From NCBI GenBank assembly GCA_022709775.1, contig JAKLIE010000029.1:1-9793 (forward strand): a DNA stretch of 9,793 nt, given 5' to 3'. The notes under the pieces are model-generated. The model saw only the letters and a program-made list of their open reading frames with translations. It had not been told where the DNA came from and searched no databases. Of the stretch, positions 336 through 9,793 are shown one piece after another. Source of the DNA: Pseudomonadota bacterium (GTDB lineage: Bacteria; Pseudomonadota; Gammaproteobacteria; Burkholderiales; Casimicrobiaceae). A program made the position numbers and the translations under genes. The number at the start of each line of letters is the position of its first letter. Within the stretch, counting starts at the first letter, position 1.

Positions 336-1346
336 CTACTGCAGCTGGACCTTCGCGTCGCGGATGACCTTGCCCCATTTCGCGATGTCGTCGGCGATCC
401 GGCGCGCGAACTGGTCCGGGCGATCGCCGATGGGCTCGGTGCCTTGCGCCACGAGTTGCGCCTTGACCTCCGGGTCTTGCACGATCGCCCCGATCGCGCC
501 CGCAAGCGCAGCCACGATGTCCTTCGCGATGCCGGACGGTGCGAGGACGCCCAGCCAGAAGCTCGCCTCGAATCCGGGCACGCCGCTCTCTCCCACGGTC
601 GGAAGATCCGGCAGTGCGACGGAACGCCTGTCGCCGGTCACCGCGAGCGCGCGCAGTCGTCCGGAGTCGATGTAGGCGCGCGCCGAGATGATGGGCTCGA
701 TGATGACCTGGACTTCACCGGCGATCGCGGCGGTCAGGGCGGGTCCGCTGCCCTTGTATTGCACGTGCACGAGATCGATGCCCGCCGCGGACTTGAAGAG
801 CTCGCCGGCGAGGTGATTCGCCGATCCGCTGCCTGCCGATCCGATGTTGAGCTGACCGGGGCGCGACTTTGCGAGGGCGATCAACTCCGGTACCGTCCTG
901 ACGGGGACGGACGGATGAACCAGCACGACGTACATGGCGGACACCACCGTCGTCACCGGCACGAGATCGCGCTGCACGTCGAGGACGACGTTTTTCGAAA
1001 GGTTCGGATAGTTCGCGAGCGCGGACGAGCCGAACAGGAGCGTGTAGCCATCGGGCGCCGCGCCGGCGACCGCCTGCATTGCGATGGCCGTTCCTGCTCC
1101 CGGCTTGTTCTCCACGACGACGGATTGCCCGAGGCGGCTCGCAAGTTTGACGGCGACGATCCGGGCGACCATGTCGGTGGACCCGCCCGGCGCGAACGGA
1201 ACGAGCATCTTGATGGTCCGGTTGGGATAGTCGGCTCCCAGGGCAGGATGCGGAAGCATGCCGCTGGCGAAGAGCGCGAGCGCGACTGCTGCGCGACGCA
1301 TCCAGCGCCTGCGAGTGGGTCGGGCTGCGAAGGGTGATCGATTCAT
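336..1346 (-). CDS. Tripartite tricarboxylate transporter substrate-binding protein (TctC/Bug family)
   Basis: This 336-residue protein is a periplasmic solute receptor of the Bug family. A basic N-terminus (RRRWMRR, 12-18) leads into a hydrophobic core (19-30) and a likely signal peptidase I site ALG|ADYP after residue 37. The mature protein shows PGGSTD (53-58), VENKPGAG (78-85) and PDGYTLL (98-104), the usual ligand-pocket landmarks, and the DLPTVGESG segment (247-255). ATG 1346 is chosen because it begins the signal peptide and has a GGGAG site six bases upstream; the frame is open further up, but that part overlaps the hydrolase gene. No TctA or TctB membrane partner is in the window, so it is an orphan receptor here, as is common for this family in Burkholderiales. 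Being last in a catabolic gene set, it probably captures the substrate acid, perhaps handing it to a transporter encoded elsewhere. The stop is TAG. Confidence 0.93.
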   Translation of the reverse strand: MNRSPFAARPTRRRWMRRAAVALALFASGMLPHPALGADYPNRTIKMLVPFAPGGSTDMVARIVAVKLASRLGQSVVVENKPGAGTAIAMQAVAGAAPDGYTLLFGSSALANYPNLSKNVVLDVQRDLVPVTTVVSAMYVVLVHPSVPVRTVPELIALAKSRPGQLNIGSAGSGSANHLAGELFKSAAGIDLVHVQYKGSGPALTAAIAGEVQVIIEPIISARAYIDSGRLRALAVTGDRRSVALPDLPTVGESGVPGFEASFWLGVLAPSGIAKDIVAALAGAIGAIVQDPEVKAQLVAQGTEPIGDRPDQFARRIADDIAKWGKVIRDAKVQLQ

Positions 1347-1441: not shown

Positions 1442-2581
1442 TCATCGTTCCGTGTCGCGCACCTTCGGAATGACGAGGGAAGCGAGCGCCTCGTCGAAGA
1501 TGGCCCCCGACGCCAGCGCCTGCCGGTAGGAGAGGAAGTCGACGACGTCCCGTCCGGTCGACTTGCGTGTCGCGAAAGCCGTGAATCCGAGCCAGGCCTC
1601 GGTCGCCATGTTGGCGGCGAGCCAGTGCCGATTGGGCAGCTTCATCTGGTCCCAGAAGAACTTCTTCTTGGCACGGATGCCGTCGATGGATTTCATCAGG
1701 CATCCGGGGAACAGGTTCGCAAAACGCCACACGAGTCGCGCGACCTCGGCGTCGAGGCGGTCGAACCTCACCTCCGCGCGCTTCATGAGCTCGCGCGATG
1801 CGGCGACGCGGTCCTCGCGCACCGGCTCCCCGTAGATGATGTCACCGTCCTCCAGGTACGCATCGGTGCGCACGAGGGGATTGCGTACGAATGTCCCGTC
1901 GATCCAGAGCACCGGCAGCGCGGCGGTGATGAGCCCCTTCATCTTCATCTTGTACGCGCTCCACGTCTCGCAGGAGACGCACGAGTACATCGCGTCCTCG
2001 ATCGACAGGAACCAGGGAAGGAAGTCGGTGGAGCCGCCGTCGGGCGCCGAACCGTGCTTGGGGCCGGCCTGTCCGAACACGGCGAGGTCCGACGAGACCG
2101 TGAAGTCGCAGGCAAGGCCGAGCTCCTGTCCGCCCGCGACGCGCATGCCGTTGACGCGGCAGATCGTCGGCTTCTTGCAGTCGAGGATGCCGTCGACCAT
2201 CGCATTGAACAGATCCATGTAGTCGCCGTACTCCGGCGGGCGTCGGCTGTAGTACGCCGAGTACTCGTCCGTGTTGCCGCCGGTGCAGAACGCCTTGTCG
2301 CCGGCGCCGGTGAACACCGCCGCGACGACGGCGCGATCCGACGAGGCGCGCTGGAATCCCAGAATGACCTGCTTCACCATCTCGGTCGTGTAGGAGTTGT
2401 ACTGCCCGGGGTTGTCGAGCGTGATCCATGCCGTGGCCAGGTCGTCGACGACGGTCCCGTCCGGCGACGCCAGCGGACGGAGCTCGTAGCGGACGGTCGG
2501 CGCGGCTGTCGTCGGGGTTCCGCAGGCAAGCGTGTGGTTCTTCAGCTCGTTGTCGCGCGGCAGCCAGGCGAGGTCAGTCAT
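1442..2581 (-). CDS. bamA-like: 6-oxocyclohex-1-ene-1-carbonyl-CoA hydrolase-like ring-opening enzyme (Oah/BamA family)
   Basis: This 379-residue crotonase-fold protein matches the Oah/BamA family in length and in its signature blocks. In the anaerobic benzoyl-CoA pathway that enzyme adds water to the 6-oxo cyclic enoyl-CoA and cleaves the ring to 3-hydroxypimelyl-CoA. Recognised segments are LDNPGQYNSYTTEMVK (55-70), VFTGAGDKAFCTGGNTDEY (89-107), CRVNGMRVAGGQELG (141-155), and FGQAGPKHGSAPDGGSTDF (169-187). The long C-terminal part after 240 is also typical of this branch and absent from ordinary enoyl-CoA hydratases. ATG 2581 has a GGAG site seven bases upstream and overlaps the GTPase stop by 8 bp. 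None of the usual partners (benzoyl-CoA reductase, dienoyl-CoA hydratase, 6-hydroxyacyl-CoA dehydrogenase) is in the window, so the substrate may be a different alicyclic keto-acyl-CoA. Family assignment is strong and rests on motifs recalled from memory. The exact substrate is open. Confidence 0.85.
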   Translation of the reverse strand: MTDLAWLPRDNELKNHTLACGTPTTAAPTVRYELRPLASPDGTVVDDLATAWITLDNPGQYNSYTTEMVKQVILGFQRASSDRAVVAAVFTGAGDKAFCTGGNTDEYSAYYSRRPPEYGDYMDLFNAMVDGILDCKKPTICRVNGMRVAGGQELGLACDFTVSSDLAVFGQAGPKHGSAPDGGSTDFLPWFLSIEDAMYSCVSCETWSAYKMKMKGLITAALPVLWIDGTFVRNPLVRTDAYLEDGDIIYGEPVREDRVAASRELMKRAEVRFDRLDAEVARLVWRFANLFPGCLMKSIDGIRAKKKFFWDQMKLPNRHWLAANMATEAWLGFTAFATRKSTGRDVVDFLSYRQALASGAIFDEALASLVIPKVRDTER

Positions 2582-3605
2582 GAGGGGCTCCGGATCGGTC
2601 GGTGGAAGGTGAGATGCGAGTGGCGTCCGGTGGCCGGCGCGCTGCGTCGAGTGCTGCGCGGGCCGCCTGGGCGAGCGTCAGCTCACCGCGTGACACACGC
2701 GCTCCGAGATCCTGGATGGAGGCTCGCGGCAGCGCACCGAGCTCGTGTTCGGTCATGCGCAGCGCACGACGGACGACGAGGCGCGCCAGAGCTCCGTCGG
2801 CGAGGCCCGCCGGCCGGCGGGCACCGCGCTCGACCAGCGCGTCTGCCAATGCATCGACGCCTGCGGCGTCGACGATGGACGTTCCGATGACCGGGATCAC
2901 GGGGGCGTCGCCGTCGCGGAGCCGAAGAAACGCGATCAGATCCGCGCGCGCACGCTCCGCACCCGGCGTATCCGACTTGCTGACGACGAAGACGTCGGCG
3001 ATCTCCATCATGCCGGCCTTGACCGCCTGCACCTCGTCGCCAAGTCCGGGAGGCAGCACCACGACGCGCGTATGTGCGACTTCGCTGACTTCGACCTCGG
3101 CCTGGCCGGTGCCGACGGTCTCGATCACGATCGGGTCGTAGCCGGCCGCATCGAGGACGTCGGCGGCGCGCGATGCGGCGAGCGAGAGCCCGCCCGTATC
3201 GCCTCGCGATCCCAGCGATCGGATGTAGGCGCCGCTGGCGCCGACGTCCCTCTCCATTCGCAGCCGATCGCCGAGGATGGCGCCGCCGCTCGCGCGGCTC
3301 GACGGGTCGACCGCGATGACGCCGACCCTCCGCCCGCGGTGCCCGTAGGCGCGAATCAGACTGCCCACGAGCGACGACTTCCCGGCGCCGGGCGGTCCCG
3401 TGATGCCGATGCGGTGGGCACGGCCCACGGCCGTGGCGAGAGCGGCAACGACCCTGCGCCCGACCTCGGAATCGCGCTCGACCTCGCTGATTGCGCGTCC
3501 GATGGCGCGCGCGCGTCCGGCACGAACGCCGTCGACGAGCGCGTCGGCGCGATCGGCGCTCACGCCGCCATGCGGCGTCGAAGGAACTTCGTCAGCGGAC
3601 GACAT
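2574..3605 (-). CDS. MeaB/ArgK-type P-loop GTPase, chaperone of the B12 mutase
   Basis: This 343-residue protein is a G3E-type GTPase of the MeaB/ArgK (MMAA) family. Such proteins gate cofactor loading and protect B12-dependent acyl-CoA mutases from inactivation. Walker A is GITGPPGAGKSS (67-78). It is followed by AVDPSS (98-103), GDRLRM (112-117), RSLGSRGDTGGLS (129-141), the family block IETVGTGQAEVEV (161-173) and PGLGDEVQAVKAGMMEIAD (186-204). The base-specificity motif NKxD reads SKSD (209-212). The C-terminal 60 residues form the usual dimerisation tail. ATG 3605 is preferred: the frame upstream offers only a TTG at 3641, and the added Arg-rich segment is unlike the family. It overlaps the transporter end by 14 bp and the hydrolase start by 8 bp. 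It lies five genes from the mutase it presumably serves, but in the same operon. The gene symbol is withheld because several paralogues (meaB, argK, meaH) look alike. Confidence 0.92.
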   Translation of the reverse strand: MSSADEVPSTPHGGVSADRADALVDGVRAGRARAIGRAISEVERDSEVGRRVVAALATAVGRAHRIGITGPPGAGKSSLVGSLIRAYGHRGRRVGVIAVDPSSRASGGAILGDRLRMERDVGASGAYIRSLGSRGDTGGLSLAASRAADVLDAAGYDPIVIETVGTGQAEVEVSEVAHTRVVVLPPGLGDEVQAVKAGMMEIADVFVVSKSDTPGAERARADLIAFLRLRDGDAPVIPVIGTSIVDAAGVDALADALVERGARRPAGLADGALARLVVRRALRMTEHELGALPRASIQDLGARVSRGELTLAQAARAALDAARRPPDATRISPSTDRSGAPHD

Positions 3606-4842
3606 GGGCCGGCGGCTCGTGCGTCGTGGACGGCAGCGCAAGCGTGATGACCGCCGTGAGCAGAGACATCGCTGCGAGGATCGCGAACAGCGTGGCGAAG
3701 GACGCTCCCGCGTCGAGCAACTGCCCGCACAGCGGCACCATCAGCGTGGCCCCGAGGAACGAGAGGGCATTGACCAGTCCGGAGGCTGCTCCCGCCCGTT
3801 TGCCGCCGACCTCGGCGAGCAGTGACAGCCCCACACCCTGGAAACCTGCTGCGGAGAGGCCCAGGATGGCGACACACGCGAGCAGGATTGCCCAATGAAC
3901 CGGACCCGCCAGCGCGAGTAGCGCGAACCCCGCTGCCGCGGTCGCGGCGATCGCGGCGTACGGTCCGCGTCTGCGTCCGTGAAAGATCCGATCGCTGATC
4001 CACCCCCATCCGACGCGGCCCGCGGCGCCGAAGAGATGCGCGAGTGCATAGATCACCGCGCCCCACGCGACCGGCAAGTGCAGGCTGTCGATCGCATACG
4101 CAATCAGGTAGGTGAGGAACGCGTACTGGATGCCCACGCGAAGGAACCCGTCGGCCGCGAGCAGCATCGTCGGACGGTGTCCGAGCATCGCCGCGATGGC
4201 ACCGCCCAGGGACGGGCGGACGGCGTGGGTCGCGGATCCAGGCGGACCGTCCAAGCGCGTGAGCCATGCGATCACGAGGGCCGCGGCGTAGAAGAGGGCG
4301 ATGACGTGGAACGACGCCTTCCAGCCCCAGGCGAGCGACACGGCCGGCACGAAGCTGGCCGCGGCGATGCCACCGACGCTGACGCCGGTCTGCTTGATGC
4401 CGACCGCGGTGGCGCGGCGGCGCTGCGTGAACCACGCCAGCATCGCCGCATTGGTCCCTGGCGTAAGGACGCTGTAGCCGATCCCCGCCGCCACCAGCAA
4501 CGTGCACGCCAGCCACAGGAACGGCGCGCCCGGGACGAACGCCAGCATCGCGGTGGCGATCGCGGTCCCGACGACGATCGAGCGCCGGACGCCGAATGCA
4601 TCGACGGCGCCGCCGGCGATCGGCGACCCCGCGACGATGCCCAGCAGGAAGGCCGACGACACCAGCGCCGCCTCGAAGTACCCGCCCCCGAGGTCGCGCC
4701 GGACGAATGGAAGGAGGGCAGGCAGACCGTAAGGCGCGCTCGCCGTCAGCGCATGAAGCGCGAACGTCGCCGACAGTACGCTCCGGGCAGTCTTGATCGG
4801 CAGCGCCGGCCCACCCGCCGCGGGTCGCGGCGCCGAGGTCAT
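3592..4842 (-). CDS. Major facilitator superfamily transporter
   Basis: This 416-residue integral inner-membrane protein looks like a 12-helix MFS permease. Hydrophobic segments span most of the length, for example 56-80, 90-120, 150-195 and 295-335. The loop 2-3 signature is GGAVDAFGVRR (77-87), matching GxxxDxxGxR. The matching loop 8-9 has GWISDRIFHGRRR (280-292), and KQTGVSVGG (150-158) sits in the fifth-helix region. The ATG at 4842 overlaps the MmgE/PrpD stop as ATGA. The frame is open much further upstream, but that part lies inside the MmgE/PrpD gene and shows no transporter features. The 3' end overlaps the GTPase gene by 14 bp. Within this operon it most likely imports the acid substrate or exports a by-product. 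Direction and substrate cannot be told from the sequence. Confidence 0.92.
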   Translation of the reverse strand: MTSAPRPAAGGPALPIKTARSVLSATFALHALTASAPYGLPALLPFVRRDLGGGYFEAALVSSAFLLGIVAGSPIAGGAVDAFGVRRSIVVGTAIATAMLAFVPGAPFLWLACTLLVAAGIGYSVLTPGTNAAMLAWFTQRRRATAVGIKQTGVSVGGIAAASFVPAVSLAWGWKASFHVIALFYAAALVIAWLTRLDGPPGSATHAVRPSLGGAIAAMLGHRPTMLLAADGFLRVGIQYAFLTYLIAYAIDSLHLPVAWGAVIYALAHLFGAAGRVGWGWISDRIFHGRRRGPYAAIAATAAAGFALLALAGPVHWAILLACVAILGLSAAGFQGVGLSLLAEVGGKRAGAASGLVNALSFLGATLMVPLCGQLLDAGASFATLFAILAAMSLLTAVITLALPSTTHEPPAHVVR

Positions 4843-6230
4843 TCCCCGCCGCGCAGCAGCGCGCCCAGCGCGTCGAGATTCCGTTGCGCGTCGAGGTCGA
4901 GCACGATCGCCGAGATCGCGTCCGCCCGATCGGCGAACGGCGTGGCGCGCAGATTGTCGTGGAACTTGTCGAGAAGCTCCGTGCGCGAGATGGGCGCGGC
5001 GCGATCGCCACGCACGCGCTCCTGCACGCAGCGCTCGGTGCGCCCGTCGGCGAGCACGATCTCGACGTCGCCCGGCATGTCCTTGACGCTGAAGCCCGGG
5101 TCGATCTGGAACGTCGCCCGCGCCATCAGTTCGGCAATCTCCGGGCGGCGCGCGTTGTCCAGCGTGAAATCCGAGGTGCCGGCGCGCCCGTCGTGGAGTG
5201 CGATCGCCACCGCGAAGGGAAGGCTGAACTTGGCCTCGTAGGCGTCGCCCGGTGCCTGCTTCGACGCCCATGGCGTGCAGATCATGTTGACGGACCCTTC
5301 GGCGACGCGGCAACGGATCGCCGCGACGTCGGCCGGCCGCACGCCGCGCTCGTCGCGAAGGCGGCGGGCGCAGTCGATGAACGATTGCAGGTAGTGACAG
5401 CACGGGTAGAGCTTCGGTCGCGTGTCCAGCAGCGTCCAGTCGTCGCCGTAACCGTCGAGGATCTCGGCGATGGCGATCGTCTCGCCGCGGACGAACGAGT
5501 TGAACACTCCGAGCCTGCCTTCGAACACCGTCGCGGGTCCCGTCAGTCCTCGACCCGCGAAGTCCGCAGCCATGATCCCGCCCATCGCGGCCCAGCCGGC
5601 ATGGAGGCGCTTCGAACCGGCGCCCGCCGGCACGCACTCGAGCAGGCCGCTCGTGAAGCTGCCTGCCACGCCGATCGCATTCGTGGCCGAGCGGTCGTCC
5701 ATTCCATGGAGCTTCGACGCGATGATCGCGGCCGCGAAGGTGCCGGCGATCGACGTCGTATGGAAGCCGTGCAGGTGGAACTGGTTGCGCGCCGGCAATG
5801 CGAGCCGGATCATCGCCTCGAAGCCGGCGGCCATCGCCAGGATCGCGTCCCGGCCGGTGGCGCCCCGCGATTCGGCCACCGCCAGCGCGGTCGGCACGAT
5901 GCAGGCGCTCGGGTGCGTGACCGATTCGGTGTGCGTATCGTCGAAGTCCTGGCCGTGAGCGAGCACGCCGTTGACGAGCGCTGCGGCATGCGCCGGAGCG
6001 CGTCGGGGCTCGCCGACGACGCTGGCGCCTCCGGAGCTTTCCCACGAGCGCACGAGCGCGCGCGTGGCGACGCCGAAATCGAGCGACGCCGACCCGATGG
6101 CGACGCCGAGCGTGTCGAGCGCGAGGTCCTTGATCTTCTCGACGACGGGGGCGGGAAGGGCGTCGTATCGCAGCGCGCCCGCATGGCGCCAAAGCGACTC
6201 CGACAGCGTCGCCGGTCTCCGGTCATCCAT
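4839..6230 (-). CDS. MmgE/PrpD family protein (2-methylcitrate dehydratase / cis-aconitate decarboxylase fold)
   Basis: This 463-residue protein is a full-length member of the family that includes 2-methylcitrate dehydratase PrpD and cis-aconitate decarboxylase. Conserved blocks appear in order: QDFDDTHTESVTHPS (94-108), GFHTTSIAGTFAAA (155-168), KRLHAGWAA (207-215), KLYPCCHYLQSFID (273-286) and AKFSLPFAVA (333-342). By comparison with cis-aconitate decarboxylase, Asp98/Thr99, His106, His157, Lys207 and His279 fall at likely active-site positions; this alignment is by eye. The gene starts at ATG 6230, overlaps the dehydrogenase end by 8 bp, and ends in an ATGA overlap with the transporter gene. 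No propionate or methylcitrate genes are beside it, so PrpD itself is unlikely. Family members acting on other carboxylic acids are often found in catabolic operons of such bacteria. A lyase or (de)hydratase step on an acid intermediate is inferred. The true reaction is unknown. Confidence 0.9.
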   Translation of the reverse strand: MDDRRPATLSESLWRHAGALRYDALPAPVVEKIKDLALDTLGVAIGSASLDFGVATRALVRSWESSGGASVVGEPRRAPAHAAALVNGVLAHGQDFDDTHTESVTHPSACIVPTALAVAESRGATGRDAILAMAAGFEAMIRLALPARNQFHLHGFHTTSIAGTFAAAIIASKLHGMDDRSATNAIGVAGSFTSGLLECVPAGAGSKRLHAGWAAMGGIMAADFAGRGLTGPATVFEGRLGVFNSFVRGETIAIAEILDGYGDDWTLLDTRPKLYPCCHYLQSFIDCARRLRDERGVRPADVAAIRCRVAEGSVNMICTPWASKQAPGDAYEAKFSLPFAVAIALHDGRAGTSDFTLDNARRPEIAELMARATFQIDPGFSVKDMPGDVEIVLADGRTERCVQERVRGDRAAPISRTELLDKFHDNLRATPFADRADAISAIVLDLDAQRNLDALGALLRGGE

Positions 6231-7398
6231 GAGTGCGCCACTCCCTGAGCGCGCGACCGATGAGCACGCGCTGAATCTCGTTGGAACCGTCGACGAGTTG
6301 CAGGTGCTTGGCGTCGCGCATCAGACGCTCGACCGGCGCATCGCTTGAGTAGCCGGTGGCGCCGAGACACTGTACGGCCTCGATCGCGACCTGCATCGCC
6401 GTGTCGGTTGCGAGGCACTTGCCCATCGCGAGCATTCCCATCAGGTCCTTCGTTGCCACGCCCCGGTCCACGAGTCGGGCTCCCGCGTGGACGAGCTGAC
6501 GCGATGCCTCGATGGCGATCGCCAGGTCGGCGAGCTTGAACTGGAGCCCCTGCAGGTCCATCAGCGTGCCGCCCAGCATCTTCCGGCTCAGGCAGTGGTC
6601 GACGGCGATCTCGAACGCGCCCTGTGCGAGACCCACGCCGCGAGCGCCGATCGCCGGTCGATTGCCGGTCATCGAACTCAGGAGCACCGACAATCCCTGG
6701 CCCTCGGCTCCCAGTCGCGCATCGCGAGGCACGGCGACCTTGTCGAAGAAGAGTCCGCCGGTCGGCATGCCGCGAATGCCCATCTTCTTCTCGAGCGGTC
6801 CGATCGTGATGCCGGGCCGGTCCCGCGGGACGAGGAATGCCGAGACCCGGCCGGCGGCGGCACCGTCGGCATGCTTCGCGAACACGATGAAGACGTCGGA
6901 GAGCGTGGTGCCGGTGATGTAGGACTTGGCGCCGGTGATCTCGTACCCGTCGGTTGTCGCGGCCGCCTTGGTGCGGATGGAGGCGGCATCCGATCCGGCG
7001 TCCGCCTCGGTAAGGGCATTCGAGAATCGCACCTCGCCGCGCGCGAGCCGCGGGAGCAGAGTCGCCTTCTGCTGGTCGCTGCCGAATCGCAGGAGCATGA
7101 CCCCCGCGATGTTGGACATCACCGGCATGAGTGCAGTCGTGGTGCAGACCTTCGCCAGTTCTTCGACGACGATGCACAGCTCCAGCAGGCCGGCGCCCGA
7201 ACCCCCGTAGGCCTCCGGAATCGTGATGCCGGTCAGGCCGTTCTGCGCGAGCAGGTCGAAGATGTCCTGCGGGTACTGCGCTGTAGCGTCGACCTCGGCG
7301 GCGCGAGGCGCCACGCGCTCGCGGGCGAGCCGCGCGACGCTTTCGCGCAGAGCGTCCTGCTCCTCGGTCAGGAACCAGCGGGGATTCTTGGCGTACAT
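6223..7398 (-). CDS. Acyl-CoA dehydrogenase family flavoprotein
   Basis: This 391-residue protein has the usual length of a short/medium-chain-type acyl-CoA dehydrogenase, an FAD homotetramer that makes an alpha,beta double bond and passes electrons to ETF. Signature 1 is complete (ALTEADAGSDAAS, 128-140). Signature 2 is recognisable at 343-362 (QCLGATGY onwards), with Ala where Gly/Ser is usual. The C-terminal motif, commonly YEGTSEIQR, reads VDGSNEIQR (369-377), which puts Asp370 (codon GAC, 6291-6289) where MCAD- and SCAD-type enzymes have the catalytic Glu. The alternative base position used by isovaleryl-CoA and long-chain enzymes aligns by eye with Asn246, so it cannot replace it. The start ATG at 7398 follows a GGAG site and lies 1 bp after the synthetase stop. 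The gene ends inside the start of the MmgE/PrpD gene (8-bp overlap). Substrate is unknown. A cyclic or branched acyl-CoA is plausible from its neighbours. Confidence 0.93.
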   Translation of the reverse strand: MYAKNPRWFLTEEQDALRESVARLARERVAPRAAEVDATAQYPQDIFDLLAQNGLTGITIPEAYGGSGAGLLELCIVVEELAKVCTTTALMPVMSNIAGVMLLRFGSDQQKATLLPRLARGEVRFSNALTEADAGSDAASIRTKAAATTDGYEITGAKSYITGTTLSDVFIVFAKHADGAAAGRVSAFLVPRDRPGITIGPLEKKMGIRGMPTGGLFFDKVAVPRDARLGAEGQGLSVLLSSMTGNRPAIGARGVGLAQGAFEIAVDHCLSRKMLGGTLMDLQGLQFKLADLAIAIEASRQLVHAGARLVDRGVATKDLMGMLAMGKCLATDTAMQVAIEAVQCLGATGYSSDAPVERLMRDAKHLQLVDGSNEIQRVLIGRALREWRTHG

Positions 7399-7399
7399 G

Positions 7400-8932
7400 T
7401 CATCTCCGGACGGTCGAGGCGCCGGTCAGCAGGAAGCGCTGGACCTTGCCCGACGCGGTCTTCGGCAACGCGTCCAGGAACTCGACGGCGCGGGGCGCCT
7501 TGTACTTCGCCAGTTGGGAGCGGCAGTGCTCGATCAGCGCGGCTTCGCTCGCGTCGGCACCGGGCCTGCGCACGACGAACGCCTTGATCGACTGACCCTT
7601 GTCGCCGTCCGGAACTCCGACGACGGCGACGTCCGCGACGGCGGGGTGCCCATAGAGCACTTCCTCGACCTCGCGCGGGTACACGTTGAAGCCCGCGGTG
7701 ATGATGAGGTCGTCCTTGCGGCCGACCAGGTAGATGAATCCGCGTTCGTCCCGCCGGCCGATGTCTCCGGTGTGGAACCAGCCTGCGCGATAGTCCGACG
7801 CGGTCTTGTTCGGCATGCGCCAGAACCCCTTCGGGATCTGGTCTCCGCGTATGACGACCTCACCTTCCGCGCCGGGCGAGACGTCGCGCCCGTCGTCGTC
7901 GACGATGCGGATTTCGCAGTTGATCGACGGATCGAGCTCGCCGAGCGCCTTGCCGATCGAGCCGATGGCTCGCTCGCCGTCCAGGGGGTTCGATGTCCCG
8001 GTCCAGCCGGTGCAGCCCCAGCCCTCGATGATCGCGGCGCCGGTGCGGTGCTCGAAGACACGCTGCATCTCGACCGGCATCGGGGCGCCTCCGACGCGGC
8101 AGATCCGGATGGAGCTGATGTCGTAGCGCCCGAAGTCCTCGAAGGCGTTTAGGTAGGCGTACATCGTCGGCACGCCGGCAAAGAAGGTGACCTTGTTGCG
8201 CTCGATCAGCTCGAGGACGAGACGCGTGTCCCAGCGCCGCAGCAGCGTCTGCGGACAGCCGACGTAGGTCGCGAGCAGGCACGGGATGATCAGACCCTTG
8301 GCGTGGAACAGCGGGAGCGCGACCATCGTGTGGTCCGACGGAGCCATGTTCCAGATGACCTGCTCGTACCGCAGCAGACTCTCGAAGTTGAAGTGCGAGC
8401 ACATCACGCCCTTCGGCCGCCCCGTCGTTCCCGACGTGTAGTACAGGTCGCAGACCTCGTCCGGGCCGCAGTCGTGCATCGGTACGCTGCGTCCCGCCCA
8501 GTCGTGTTCGAGCGCAGCGAACGAGTGCGCACCGTGGATCTCCGCGTCGGTCACGACGAGATGGCGAAGGTGAGGACACTCCGGCCAGATCTGCTCGATC
8601 AGCGCGAGCTGCGAGGATTCGGTGACGAGCACGTGCGGTGTCGCATTGTTCAGCACGTACTGCGCCTCACGGGCCTGAAACATGATGTTCATCGGCGCCG
8701 CCGCGGCGCCGAGTCGAATGGCGGCCCACCGCGCGATCAGGAACTCGGGACAATTCGCGAGGAAGAGGCCGACGCGGTCACCCGCGCCGACGCCCATGGA
8801 CGAGAGGGCGGCCGCAAAGGCCTCGACGCGCGAGAGCAACTCGCCGTGGGTGATCGTGTGACCCTCGAAGTGGATGGCGGCGCCGCCGGGATCCCGCGAC
8901 GCATTGCGAACCAGCCAGTCGGAGATGTTCAT
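7400..8932 (-). CDS. Acyl-CoA synthetase (AMP-forming, ANL superfamily)
   Basis: This 510-residue protein is a full-length adenylate-forming acid:CoA ligase, which would turn a carboxylic acid into its CoA thioester through an acyl-AMP. The P-loop YYTSGTTGRPKGV is at 164-176. The A7 aspartate is D390 in GWFHTGD, the hinge region is GRKDDLI (404-410), followed by AGFNVYPREVEEVL, and the acyl-AMP-forming lysine is K496 in PKTASGK. Motif A5, usually YGxTE, reads GWGCTG at 304-309, so the usual Glu is Gly309 (codon GGC at 8008-8006). The ATG at 8932 is chosen because the upstream extension is out of family and overlaps the small subunit. At that ATG the arrangement is a clean 4-bp ATGA overlap. 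The next gene starts 2 bp past the stop. Placement between mutase and dehydrogenase suggests it activates the operon's substrate. Acid specificity (medium-chain, cyclic or branched) cannot be read. Confidence 0.93.
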   Translation of the reverse strand: MNISDWLVRNASRDPGGAAIHFEGHTITHGELLSRVEAFAAALSSMGVGAGDRVGLFLANCPEFLIARWAAIRLGAAAAPMNIMFQAREAQYVLNNATPHVLVTESSQLALIEQIWPECPHLRHLVVTDAEIHGAHSFAALEHDWAGRSVPMHDCGPDEVCDLYYTSGTTGRPKGVMCSHFNFESLLRYEQVIWNMAPSDHTMVALPLFHAKGLIIPCLLATYVGCPQTLLRRWDTRLVLELIERNKVTFFAGVPTMYAYLNAFEDFGRYDISSIRICRVGGAPMPVEMQRVFEHRTGAAIIEGWGCTGWTGTSNPLDGERAIGSIGKALGELDPSINCEIRIVDDDGRDVSPGAEGEVVIRGDQIPKGFWRMPNKTASDYRAGWFHTGDIGRRDERGFIYLVGRKDDLIITAGFNVYPREVEEVLYGHPAVADVAVVGVPDGDKGQSIKAFVVRRPGADASEAALIEHCRSQLAKYKAPRAVEFLDALPKTASGKVQRFLLTGASTVRR

Positions 8933-9339
8933 GCCGGCAGCCGCTCCTCGGCGGCGCGGCGAACGAATGCGACCACGTCGTCGAGCTTCGCTCCCTCGGT
9001 GAACACCTCGCGCACGCCCAGCGCCTTCAGCCCGGGAATGTCGTCCGGCGGAATGAAGCCGCCTGCCAGGAGCACGATGTCGCCGGCGTCCTGCTCCTTC
9101 AGGCGTTCGGCGATTCGGGCGCAAAGCGCCATGTGTGCGCCGGACAGGATGGACACCCCAAGCACGTCGACGTCCTCCTGCACGGCGACGTCGACCAGCT
9201 GCTCAGGCGAGTTGTGCCGCCCGGAGTAGATCACCTCCATGCCGGCGTCGCGCAGCGCCATGATCACGAGCATGATTCCGCGGTCGTGGCCGCACAACCC
9301 GGGCTTGCCCATCAGGATTCGGGGTACACGCTTTTCCAT
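8929..9339 (-). CDS. Cobalamin-binding small subunit of acyl-CoA mutase, with altered DxHxxG motif
   Basis: This 136-residue protein is a single B12-binding Rossmann-like domain, the normal size for a free-standing mutase small subunit. It supplies the lower histidine ligand to cobalt and works as a heterodimer with the large subunit encoded just upstream. His18 and Gly21 fit the DxHxxG signature (GLCGHDRG), but the leading Asp is Cys16, codon TGC at 9294-9292. The second element, SxL, is at 63-65 (GVSILSG) and the GG element at 93-94 (LLAGG). Other family landmarks are ALRDAGMEVIYSG (28-40) and QEDVDVLGVS. The ATG at 9339 is supported by an AAGGA ribosome site seven bases upstream. The stop overlaps the start of the synthetase gene as ATGA, so the two are translationally coupled. 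The family is certain. Activity with the changed motif is not known. Confidence 0.93.
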   Translation of the reverse strand: MEKRVPRILMGKPGLCGHDRGIMLVIMALRDAGMEVIYSGRHNSPEQLVDVAVQEDVDVLGVSILSGAHMALCARIAERLKEQDAGDIVLLAGGFIPPDDIPGLKALGVREVFTEGAKLDDVVAFVRRAAEERLPA

Positions 9340-9350
9340 CTCGCAGTCCT

Positions 9351-9793
9351 TCAGATGCGGCCGCGCTCGTCGTACTCGCCGAACACGTCCTTCAGTGCCT
9401 TGCAGATCTCTCCCATCGTCGCGTAGGCCCGGACCGCCTCGATGATGGGCACCATGAGATTGCTTTCGCTGCCTTCGGGGAGGCGCGCGACGCGCTTGAG
9501 CTCCTCGATCGCGGCGGTCGCGGCGGCGCCGTCGCGCTCCCGGCGGACCGCGCGCACGTCCTCGATACGGCGTCCTTCCTCCGCGGGATCGAGCTGGTAA
9601 GGGCGGCGCGGCGGCTCGACCTCGTCGATGCGGTACTTGTTGACGCCGACCTTGATCTTCTCGCCGCGCTCCACCGCGCGTTGCGCCTCGTAGGCATCCT
9701 GCGCGATCGTACGGCGGATCGAGCCGTTTTCGATCGCGCGCACGATGCCGCCTTCGCGCTCGATGCGATCGATCGCCGACAGCACACGCGACT
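9351..9793 (-). CDS. B12-dependent acyl-CoA mutase, large (catalytic) subunit, C-terminal part
   Basis: This is the last 146 codons of a methylmalonyl-CoA mutase-type large subunit. The reading frame is still open at the window edge, so the start and most of the TIM barrel lie outside. The family moves a group between adjacent carbons of an acyl-CoA using an adenosylcobalamin radical. Seen here are a helix with AIDRIEREGG, the family element GVNKYR, a linker starting YQLDPAEE, and a final helical stretch LMVPIIEAVRAYATMGEIC typical of the end of stand-alone large subunits. It ends in TGA without a cobalamin-binding domain. That domain is encoded by the next gene, 11 bp downstream, as in IcmA/IcmB, HcmA/HcmB and archaeal MutA/MutB types. 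The substrate-determining residues are off-window, so methylmalonyl-, isobutyryl-, 2-hydroxyisobutyryl-, pivalyl- or another CoA ester are all open. The family call is strong, the substrate unknown. Confidence 0.9.
   Translation of the reverse strand, partial: SRVLSAIDRIEREGGIVRAIENGSIRRTIAQDAYEAQRAVERGEKIKVGVNKYRIDEVEPPRRPYQLDPAEEGRRIEDVRAVRRERDGAAATAAIEELKRVARLPEGSESNLMVPIIEAVRAYATMGEICKALKDVFGEYDERGRI

What the first reader, a model, noticed from the sequence alone, without database searches (positions are those of the whole stretch)
1442..9793. One operon joins a B12 carbon-skeleton mutase to a BamA-like ring-opening hydrolase: candidate undescribed alicyclic or branched-acid pathway
Eight genes in a row (mutase large and small subunits, acyl-CoA synthetase, acyl-CoA dehydrogenase, MmgE/PrpD, MFS transporter, MeaB-type GTPase, BamA-like hydrolase) overlap or lie within 11 bp, so they are very likely co-expressed. 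Mutase + GTPase + CoA ligase recalls the 2-hydroxyisobutyryl-CoA mutase cluster. The BamA family belongs to anaerobic cleavage of a 6-oxo cyclic enoyl-CoA. I know of no described pathway using both. A working model is: acid uptake, CoA activation, desaturation, skeletal rearrangement (possibly changing ring size or moving a branch), then hydrolytic ring opening, with the MmgE/PrpD protein acting on an acid intermediate. The order of steps and the substrate are inference.
Basis: partly seen in the sequence, partly recalled or inferred. Interest (0 to 1): 0.75.

Follow-up and report, generated by a model that had tools for sequence, protein, structure and literature searches.

The report
B12 mutase operon carrying ring-opening hydrolase
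A bacterial operon, in large part conserved in related bacteria, couples an unusual vitamin-B12-dependent carbon-skeleton mutase to a ring-opening enzyme of the anaerobic benzoate pathway, which points to an undescribed route for breaking down a bulky, possibly cyclic, acid.

Summary
The gene row is real: eight tightly packed or overlapping genes, then a Bug/TctC receptor gene. The same order occurs in one other Burkholderiales genome (L001). BamA passes its curated family model. The mutase is neither ordinary methylmalonyl-CoA mutase (MCM) nor 2-hydroxyisobutyryl-CoA mutase (HCM): it lies in its own well-supported clade, the nearest neighbour with a known role being the IaaG-like mutase of indoleacetate degradation (modest support). 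The clade keeps Y89, R207, H244 and E370, has exchanged most residues that contact CoA in MCM (contacts recalled), and its small subunit has Cys for the usual Asp of the B12 motif. The dehydrogenase motif is VDG; the closest published one is GDG of cyclohexanecarboxyl-CoA dehydrogenase. BamA is an add-on: G450 has the seven-gene core without it. The three genomes whose operon has ligase and dehydrogenase also carry BamA and benzoyl-CoA reductase away from the operon; the two whose reduced operon lacks both genes have neither. Best reading: a new mutase subfamily that rearranges a bulky, perhaps alicyclic or aryl, dicarboxyl-CoA and feeds benzoyl-CoA-type ring cleavage. Substrate and step order are inference. 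'No described pathway uses both' is too strong: indoleacetate degradation joins a B12 mutase to the benzoyl-CoA pathway.

The parts
9351..9793 (-). AdoCbl-dependent acyl-CoA mutase large subunit, C-terminal 146 aa (gene continues beyond the window; full length = P0125, 557 aa)
   Evidence: PF01642 110 bits; identical to C-term of P0125; own clade 100/99 in tree
8929..9339 (-). mutase small subunit, B12-binding domain, motif KPGLCGHDRG (Cys in place of the usual Asp)
   Evidence: PF02310; TIGR00640 130.7 bits over cut-off 57.45; Cys in 112 of the 120 best homologues listed
7400..8932 (-). AMP-forming acyl-CoA synthetase/ligase
   Evidence: PF00501, PF13193; below the curated cut-off of each of the 25 NCBIfam models shown of 111 matched
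6223..7398 (-). acyl-CoA dehydrogenase with VDG instead of YEG at the catalytic motif
   Evidence: PF02771/PF02770/PF00441; motif in window, L001, G450, G402
4839..6230 (-). MmgE/PrpD family protein (relatives: IDS-epimerase, cis-aconitate decarboxylase, 2-methylcitrate dehydratase)
   Evidence: PF03972, PF19305; best PDB matches 2hp3/2hp0 and cis-aconitate decarboxylase
3592..4842 (-). MFS transporter
   Evidence: PF07690 148.6 bits
2574..3605 (-). MeaB-type GTPase, mutase chaperone (start at 3605 is my choice)
   Evidence: PF03308 229 bits; TIGR00750 241.2 over cut-off 240.75 (on the longer ORF from 3641); P-loop GPPGAGKS
1442..2581 (-). [quoted passage not shown]
   Evidence: TIGR03200 548.6 bits over cut-off 464.45; 68-72% identical to most of the 120 listed homologues, several named Rhodocyclaceae
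336..1346 (-). Bug/TctC periplasmic solute receptor, downstream of BamA (start is my reading)
   Evidence: PF03401 247 bits; 89% identical in L001 at the same place

Best explanation
A catabolic operon whose centre is a new subfamily of AdoCbl-dependent acyl-CoA mutases related to the phenylsuccinyl-/benzylmalonyl-CoA mutase of indoleacetate degradation. Proposed working: MFS and Bug proteins take up a di- or polycarboxylic acid; MmgE/PrpD acts on an acid intermediate (dehydration, epimerisation or decarboxylation); the ligase makes a CoA thioester; mutase plus MeaB interconvert a bulky substituted succinyl-CoA and malonyl-CoA; the VDG dehydrogenase oxidises the alpha-branched or cyclic product; BamA, local or from the host's benzoyl-CoA pathway, opens a 6-oxocyclohexenyl-CoA ring. 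Shown: gene families, operon, conservation, residue pattern, tree, co-occurrence. Inferred: substrate, step order, and that BamA and mutase act in one pathway.
For: The mutase clade (23 rows) is one side of a 100/99 branch, sister to a 50%-identity group (joined at 100/100), and lies with three IaaG-like rows (87/78) away from human and P. shermanii MCM and HCM. Y89, Q197, R207, H244, E370 are the same in 46 of 46 clade rows; PDB titles name Y89F and H244A mutants of MCM. The R207 site is kept while Y243 is G in 44 of 46, which suggests a larger substrate. VDG resembles GDG of cyclohexanecarboxyl-CoA dehydrogenase (PMC8360864); among 32 ACAD rows of the fetched loci it occurs only in this operon's three. 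Genomes whose operon has ligase and ACAD (G001, G450, G402) have BamA and BcrB on other contigs, 3 of 3; G056 and G101, lacking both genes beside the mutase, have neither. In the family of G001, 16 of 64 genomes have a BamA match at E <= 1e-80 and the three mutase-clade genomes are among them (Fisher p = 0.013). The BamA pieces are under purifying selection.
Against: The core exists without BamA (G450; reduced in G056 and G101), and BamA lies in two frames in L001, so BamA may not belong to the pathway. IaaG kinship has only 87/78 support. Residues that contact CoA in MCM are mostly lost, which a CoA substrate does not explain. Only three genomes of one family carry the co-occurrence; completeness of these genomes was not told. 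The family names of ligase and PrpD do not fix a ring.
Confidence: 0.42

Rival explanations
1. BamA is a passenger. The core (mutase, PrpD, MeaB, with or without ligase and ACAD) degrades an acyclic branched or poly-carboxylic acid, and BamA with Bug was appended downstream of MeaB in some lineages for another purpose.
For: G450 has seven core genes at 81-96% identity but no BamA or Bug match after MeaB, only a convergent Ldh_2 gene about 140-160 nt on. G056 and G101 keep mutase, PrpD and MeaB without ligase, ACAD or BamA beside them and have no BamA at E <= 1e-60. BamA synonymous divergence window-L001 (0.28 and 0.38 for its two pieces) is below that of the other genes (0.40-0.70), as if spread separately. 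Only 1 of 80 BamA loci lay in this operon (47 of the 80 loci are 15 kb or longer).
Against: BamA start overlaps the MeaB stop by 8 nt in window and L001; purifying selection; presence, judged by equal contig length and source only, in two further lineages (P0002/P0137/P0262, 21,224 bp; P0008/P0251, 9,214 bp). The core with ligase and ACAD keeps company with the benzoyl-CoA pathway.
Confidence: 0.33
2. The mutase acts on a free or differently carried acid rather than on an acyl-CoA; ligase and ACAD act later.
For: Positions that contact CoA in MCM (set recalled from the UniProt entry of P. shermanii MCM) are changed in the clade: Y75 mostly D/E, R82 mostly K/N, R87 S, S114 Y, R283 G/N, S285 F. 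G056 and G101 have two PrpD genes and no ligase beside the mutase.
Confidence: 0.1
3. Ordinary propionate or 2-hydroxyisobutyrate metabolism: the mutase is MCM or HCM and the rest is beta-oxidation.
For: Mutase + MeaB-type GTPase + CoA ligase resembles the hcm cluster (PMC7176365, passages); best sequence match in PDB is HCM 4r3u, 408 bits, for the L001 mutase.
Against: HCM Ile/Gln at MCM positions 89/207 are Tyr/Arg; the tree places it away from MCM and HCM; L001's genome has another mutase that groups with human MCM (L081).
Confidence: 0.06

Closest known systems
iaa operon: anaerobic indoleacetate degradation (IaaGH mutase, IaaF dehydrogenase), Aromatoleum aromaticum
   Same: two-subunit B12 mutase plus an acyl-CoA dehydrogenase with altered YEG motif; leads toward the benzoyl-CoA pathway; nearest mutase of known role in the tree (IaaG-like rows, 87/78)
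   Different: IaaF motif GGG versus VDG; the iaa-like operon of L001's genome (L103) has hydantoinase, molybdenum-hydroxylase-like and CoA-transferase genes, absent from the window; no BamA among the nine genes called on that 10.6 kb contig
2-hydroxyisobutyryl-CoA mutase cluster (hcl, hcmAB, meaH)
   Same: mutase L and S, ligase and MeaB-type GTPase in one operon
   Different: active-site Ile/Gln are Tyr/Arg; extra ACAD, PrpD, MFS, BamA; separate clade
Methylmalonyl-CoA mutase
   Different: most CoA-contact residues, Y243, Q330, W334, N366 changed; B12 motif Asp is Cys
BamA/Oah of the benzoyl-CoA pathway
   Same: passes TIGR03200; of 183 positions conserved in at least 93% of 88 canonical rows only 6 differ in all three intact operon-type rows (window, P0001, P0002), 2 of them as in the native Burkholderiales form
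   Different: no Had, Dch or reductase gene beside it in the window; of 80 BamA loci 71 hold a member of the cluster whose representative is Had (TIGR03201, 545.6 bits)
Cyclohexanecarboxyl-CoA dehydrogenase
   Same: Asp in the catalytic motif; NF043006 matches at 291.5 bits
   Different: below its cut-off of 650 bits; V not G before the Asp

Membership tests
BamA/Oah (TIGR03200) | score above curated equivalog cut-off 464.45 | tested here: met
   548.6 bits
BamA/Oah (TIGR03200) | located with Had, Dch or benzoyl-CoA reductase genes (usual, not strictly defining) | tested here: not met
   none among the nine window genes nor the L001 genes examined; 71 of 80 BamA loci have the Had cluster
[quoted passage not shown]
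   needs enzyme assay
2-hydroxyisobutyryl-CoA mutase (HCM) | Ile and Gln at MCM positions 89 and 207 | tested here: not met
   Tyr and Arg in 46 of 46 clade rows
2-hydroxyisobutyryl-CoA mutase (HCM) | mutase with CoA ligase and MeaB-type GTPase in one operon | tested here: met
   that the ligase is 2-HIBA-specific was not tested
Methylmalonyl-CoA mutase | groups with known MCMs | tested here: not met
   clade 100/99 apart from human and 1req MCM
Methylmalonyl-CoA mutase | Y89, R207, H244 at the active site | tested here: met
Methylmalonyl-CoA mutase | CoA-contact residues Y75, R82, R87, S114, R283, S285 (set recalled) | tested here: not met
   all six differ in P0125
IaaGH phenylsuccinyl-CoA mutase | groups with IaaG-like mutases with strong support | tested here: inconclusive
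   87/78; the IaaG-like rows are themselves named by gene content, not by a labelled reference
IaaGH/IaaF system | dehydrogenase with GGG motif | tested here: not met
   VDG
Cyclohexanecarboxyl-CoA dehydrogenase | NF043006 score above 650 | tested here: not met
   291.5 bits
MeaB | TIGR00750 above 240.75 bits | tested here: met
   241.2 bits
MmgE/PrpD | both Pfam domains above cut-off | tested here: met
   204.2 and 118.4 bits
2-methylcitrate dehydratase PrpD | NCBIfam equivalog cut-off (TIGR02330 458 or NF042438 950) | tested here: not met
   29.3 and 79.6 bits

The most novel reading that the evidence does not exclude
A B12 mutase subfamily with a rebuilt acyl pocket and a Cys in place of the Asp that partners the cobalamin-ligating His rearranges an alicyclic dicarboxyl-CoA (for example a ring 1,2-dicarboxyl-CoA to a geminal one). 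Loss of CO2 and VDG-type dehydrogenation then give a cyclohexene-carboxyl-CoA that enters BamA: an oxygen-independent route from hydrophthalate-like acids to ring cleavage.
Probability: 0.1. Interest if true: 0.82.

Novelty: new variant of a known kind. Interest (0 to 1): 0.55.

Why it matters
B12 acyl-CoA mutases have few known reactions. Here is a subfamily (100 of the 120 best homologues listed are 58% or more identical to it, some of them partial) with its own nearly fixed set of active-site residues, a changed B12 motif, and neighbours that narrow its substrate to a dicarboxylic, probably bulky, acyl group. If it does feed BamA, it is a new entry to the central anaerobic ring-cleavage pathway. 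The enzyme set is small enough to be assayed directly.

Tried and rejected

Rows dropped: six rows could not be extracted (two were read from larger loci and two recovered; L118 and L121 stayed out). The L001 BamA row was out of frame and is not used; the count of 9 differing positions was replaced by 6 without that row. One search dropped near-duplicate and partial ACAD rows before its 32; two of its three GGG rows (L103, L082) are one gene. In one search, 8 of 120 small subunits have Asp; 7 of the 8 come from contigs under 1 kb and were not followed. In one search one BamA match (G440) is a 199-residue piece at 66% identity.

Literature (open-licence library only): no paper with BamA hydrolase name + mutase + cobalamin; [quoted passage not shown] PMC8360864: parts 1, 3, 4 of 6 read; PMC7176365, PMC11599936, PMC8163825, PMC7324539: passages. 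The searches brought no paper on this operon in their listings (brought PMC8360864).
Full report
Observation. The window has nine genes on its minus strand: mutase large subunit (C-terminal part), B12-binding small subunit, AMP-forming CoA ligase, acyl-CoA dehydrogenase (ACAD), MmgE/PrpD, MFS, MeaB, BamA and a Bug/TctC receptor. The first eight are packed with gaps of -8 to 28 nt by the script's starts; a likelier MeaB ATG would turn the 28 into an overlap of 14, as in G450. The full mutase is P0125, whose last 146 residues equal the window's.

Conservation. A scan of the genome collection with BamA kept 80 loci of 115 relatives. One, L001, has the whole order (mutL C-term 87%, mutS 93%, ligase 89%, ACAD 95%, PrpD 85%, MFS 84%, MeaB 84%, BamA 74% over residues 1-57 and 87% over 59-379, Bug 89%). 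Two others (L065, L075) have a more distant mutase pair (41-47%) nearby on the opposite strand; not every locus is long (47 of 80 are 15 kb or more). L001's BamA changes frame near codon 58: an assembly error or a decayed gene. Searching with the mutase: 4 of 399 genomes of the order at E <= 1e-150 (G001 itself, G056, G101, and G294 at 49%), 3 of 64 of the family at 1e-180, 2 of 4 of G056's family, 0 of 395 of the phylum of G457 with query P0176, 1 of 369 of the class, G001 itself. G450 carries seven genes from mutL to MeaB at 81-96% and then no BamA or Bug match; G402 has mutL, mutS, ligase, ACAD, PrpD and part of MeaB (53-74%), where its contig ends, so what follows is unknown; G056 and G101 have mutL, mutS, two PrpD and MeaB. 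Equal contig lengths and sources suggest BamA beside this mutase in two more lineages (P0002/P0137/P0262; P0008/P0251).

Dehydrogenase. Its catalytic motif is VDG in window, L001, G450 and G402. Of 32 ACAD rows in the fetched loci 3 have VDG, all of this operon; the rest are YEG 18, VEG 5, GGG 3 (two of them one gene), LEG 2, FEG 1. A published survey gives GDG for cyclohexanecarboxyl-CoA dehydrogenase and GGG for the decarboxylating benzylmalonyl-CoA dehydrogenase IaaF, and suggests that loss of the Tyr may help to accommodate bulky or alpha-substituted substrates (PMC8360864). The match to the cyclohexanecarboxyl model is far below its cut-off.

BamA and the benzoyl-CoA pathway. BamA passes TIGR03200 (548.6 over 464.45). 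Of 183 positions conserved in canonical BamA, 6 differ in all three intact operon-type rows. Canonical BamA loci carry Had (TIGR03201) in 71 of 80, by cluster membership with one representative tested. G001 has a second BamA (609 bits) beside Dch and 2-oxoacid:acceptor oxidoreductase genes on another contig and BcrB. G450 and G402 have BamA and BcrB on contigs other than the operon's; G056 and G101 have neither, G294 has no BamA. In the family 16 of 64 genomes have a BamA match at E <= 1e-80, and all three mutase carriers are among them (Fisher p = 0.013; the genomes are related and may be incomplete, so this is suggestive only). Thus the ligase-plus-ACAD form of the operon goes with the benzoyl-CoA pathway and the form without them does not, on five genomes. 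Against this, BamA itself is dispensable in G450, and its synonymous divergence between window and L001 (0.28 and 0.38 for the two pieces) is lower than its neighbours' (0.40-0.70).

Closest described system. L001's genome also holds an iaa-like operon (L103): hydantoinase B, ACAD with GGG motif, mutS, mutL, molybdenum-hydroxylase-like subunits, CoA-transferase III, binding protein; the GGG motif, transferase and binding protein match the paper, the other two genes match my recollection of iaa. In A. aromaticum this pathway is described as converting a (2-aminophenyl)succinyl-CoA to a benzylmalonyl-type CoA by a B12 mutase and then oxidising and decarboxylating it (PMC8360864). The window operon works like it in outline but is not a member: different dehydrogenase motif, no iaa-specific genes, separate mutase clade.

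Conclusion. The gene row and its conservation are established. That the mutase is a distinct subfamily is well supported. That it handles a bulky dicarboxyl-CoA and feeds benzoyl-CoA-type ring cleavage is the best reading (0.42), with BamA as passenger the chief rival (0.33). I cannot name the substrate from sequence.

Noticed in passing
window 8929-9339 (motif near its 5' end): Small-subunit B12 motif has Cys for the conserved Asp two residues before the cobalamin-binding His (112 of the 120 best homologues).
   Followed up: partly
L103 (G001 contig C245) 1-10392: An iaa-like indoleacetate operon with GGG-motif dehydrogenase in the same genome as L001's operon.
   Followed up: yes
L001:10001-11138: BamA of L001 changes frame near codon 58; it is open throughout in the window, P0001 and P0002.
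   Followed up: partly
L100 (G056) 376-11094 and L099 (G294): The 50%-identity mutase group sits with a small subunit and a ligase-like gene; in L100 also UbiD, an old-yellow-enzyme-type reductase, a crotonase-like gene and a PrpD: another uncharacterised mutase operon.
   Followed up: partly
L123:2551-9789 and L001:12680-16893: Beside the operon in G450 and L001, convergent to it: Ldh_2 family dehydrogenase and a fused TRAP permease, in G450 also PrpD and an NMT1-type receptor; perhaps part of the same substrate's uptake and oxidation.
   Followed up: no
L065, L075: Desulfobacterales/Desulfobacteraceae loci with a more distant B12 mutase pair (41-47%) within a few kb of BamA on the opposite strand.
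   Followed up: no
P0211: A member of the mutase clade is listed from a Promethearchaeota archaeon; a paper on Hermodarchaeota reports alkylsuccinate-type and benzoyl-CoA genes in Asgard archaea (PMC8163825, passages).
   Followed up: no
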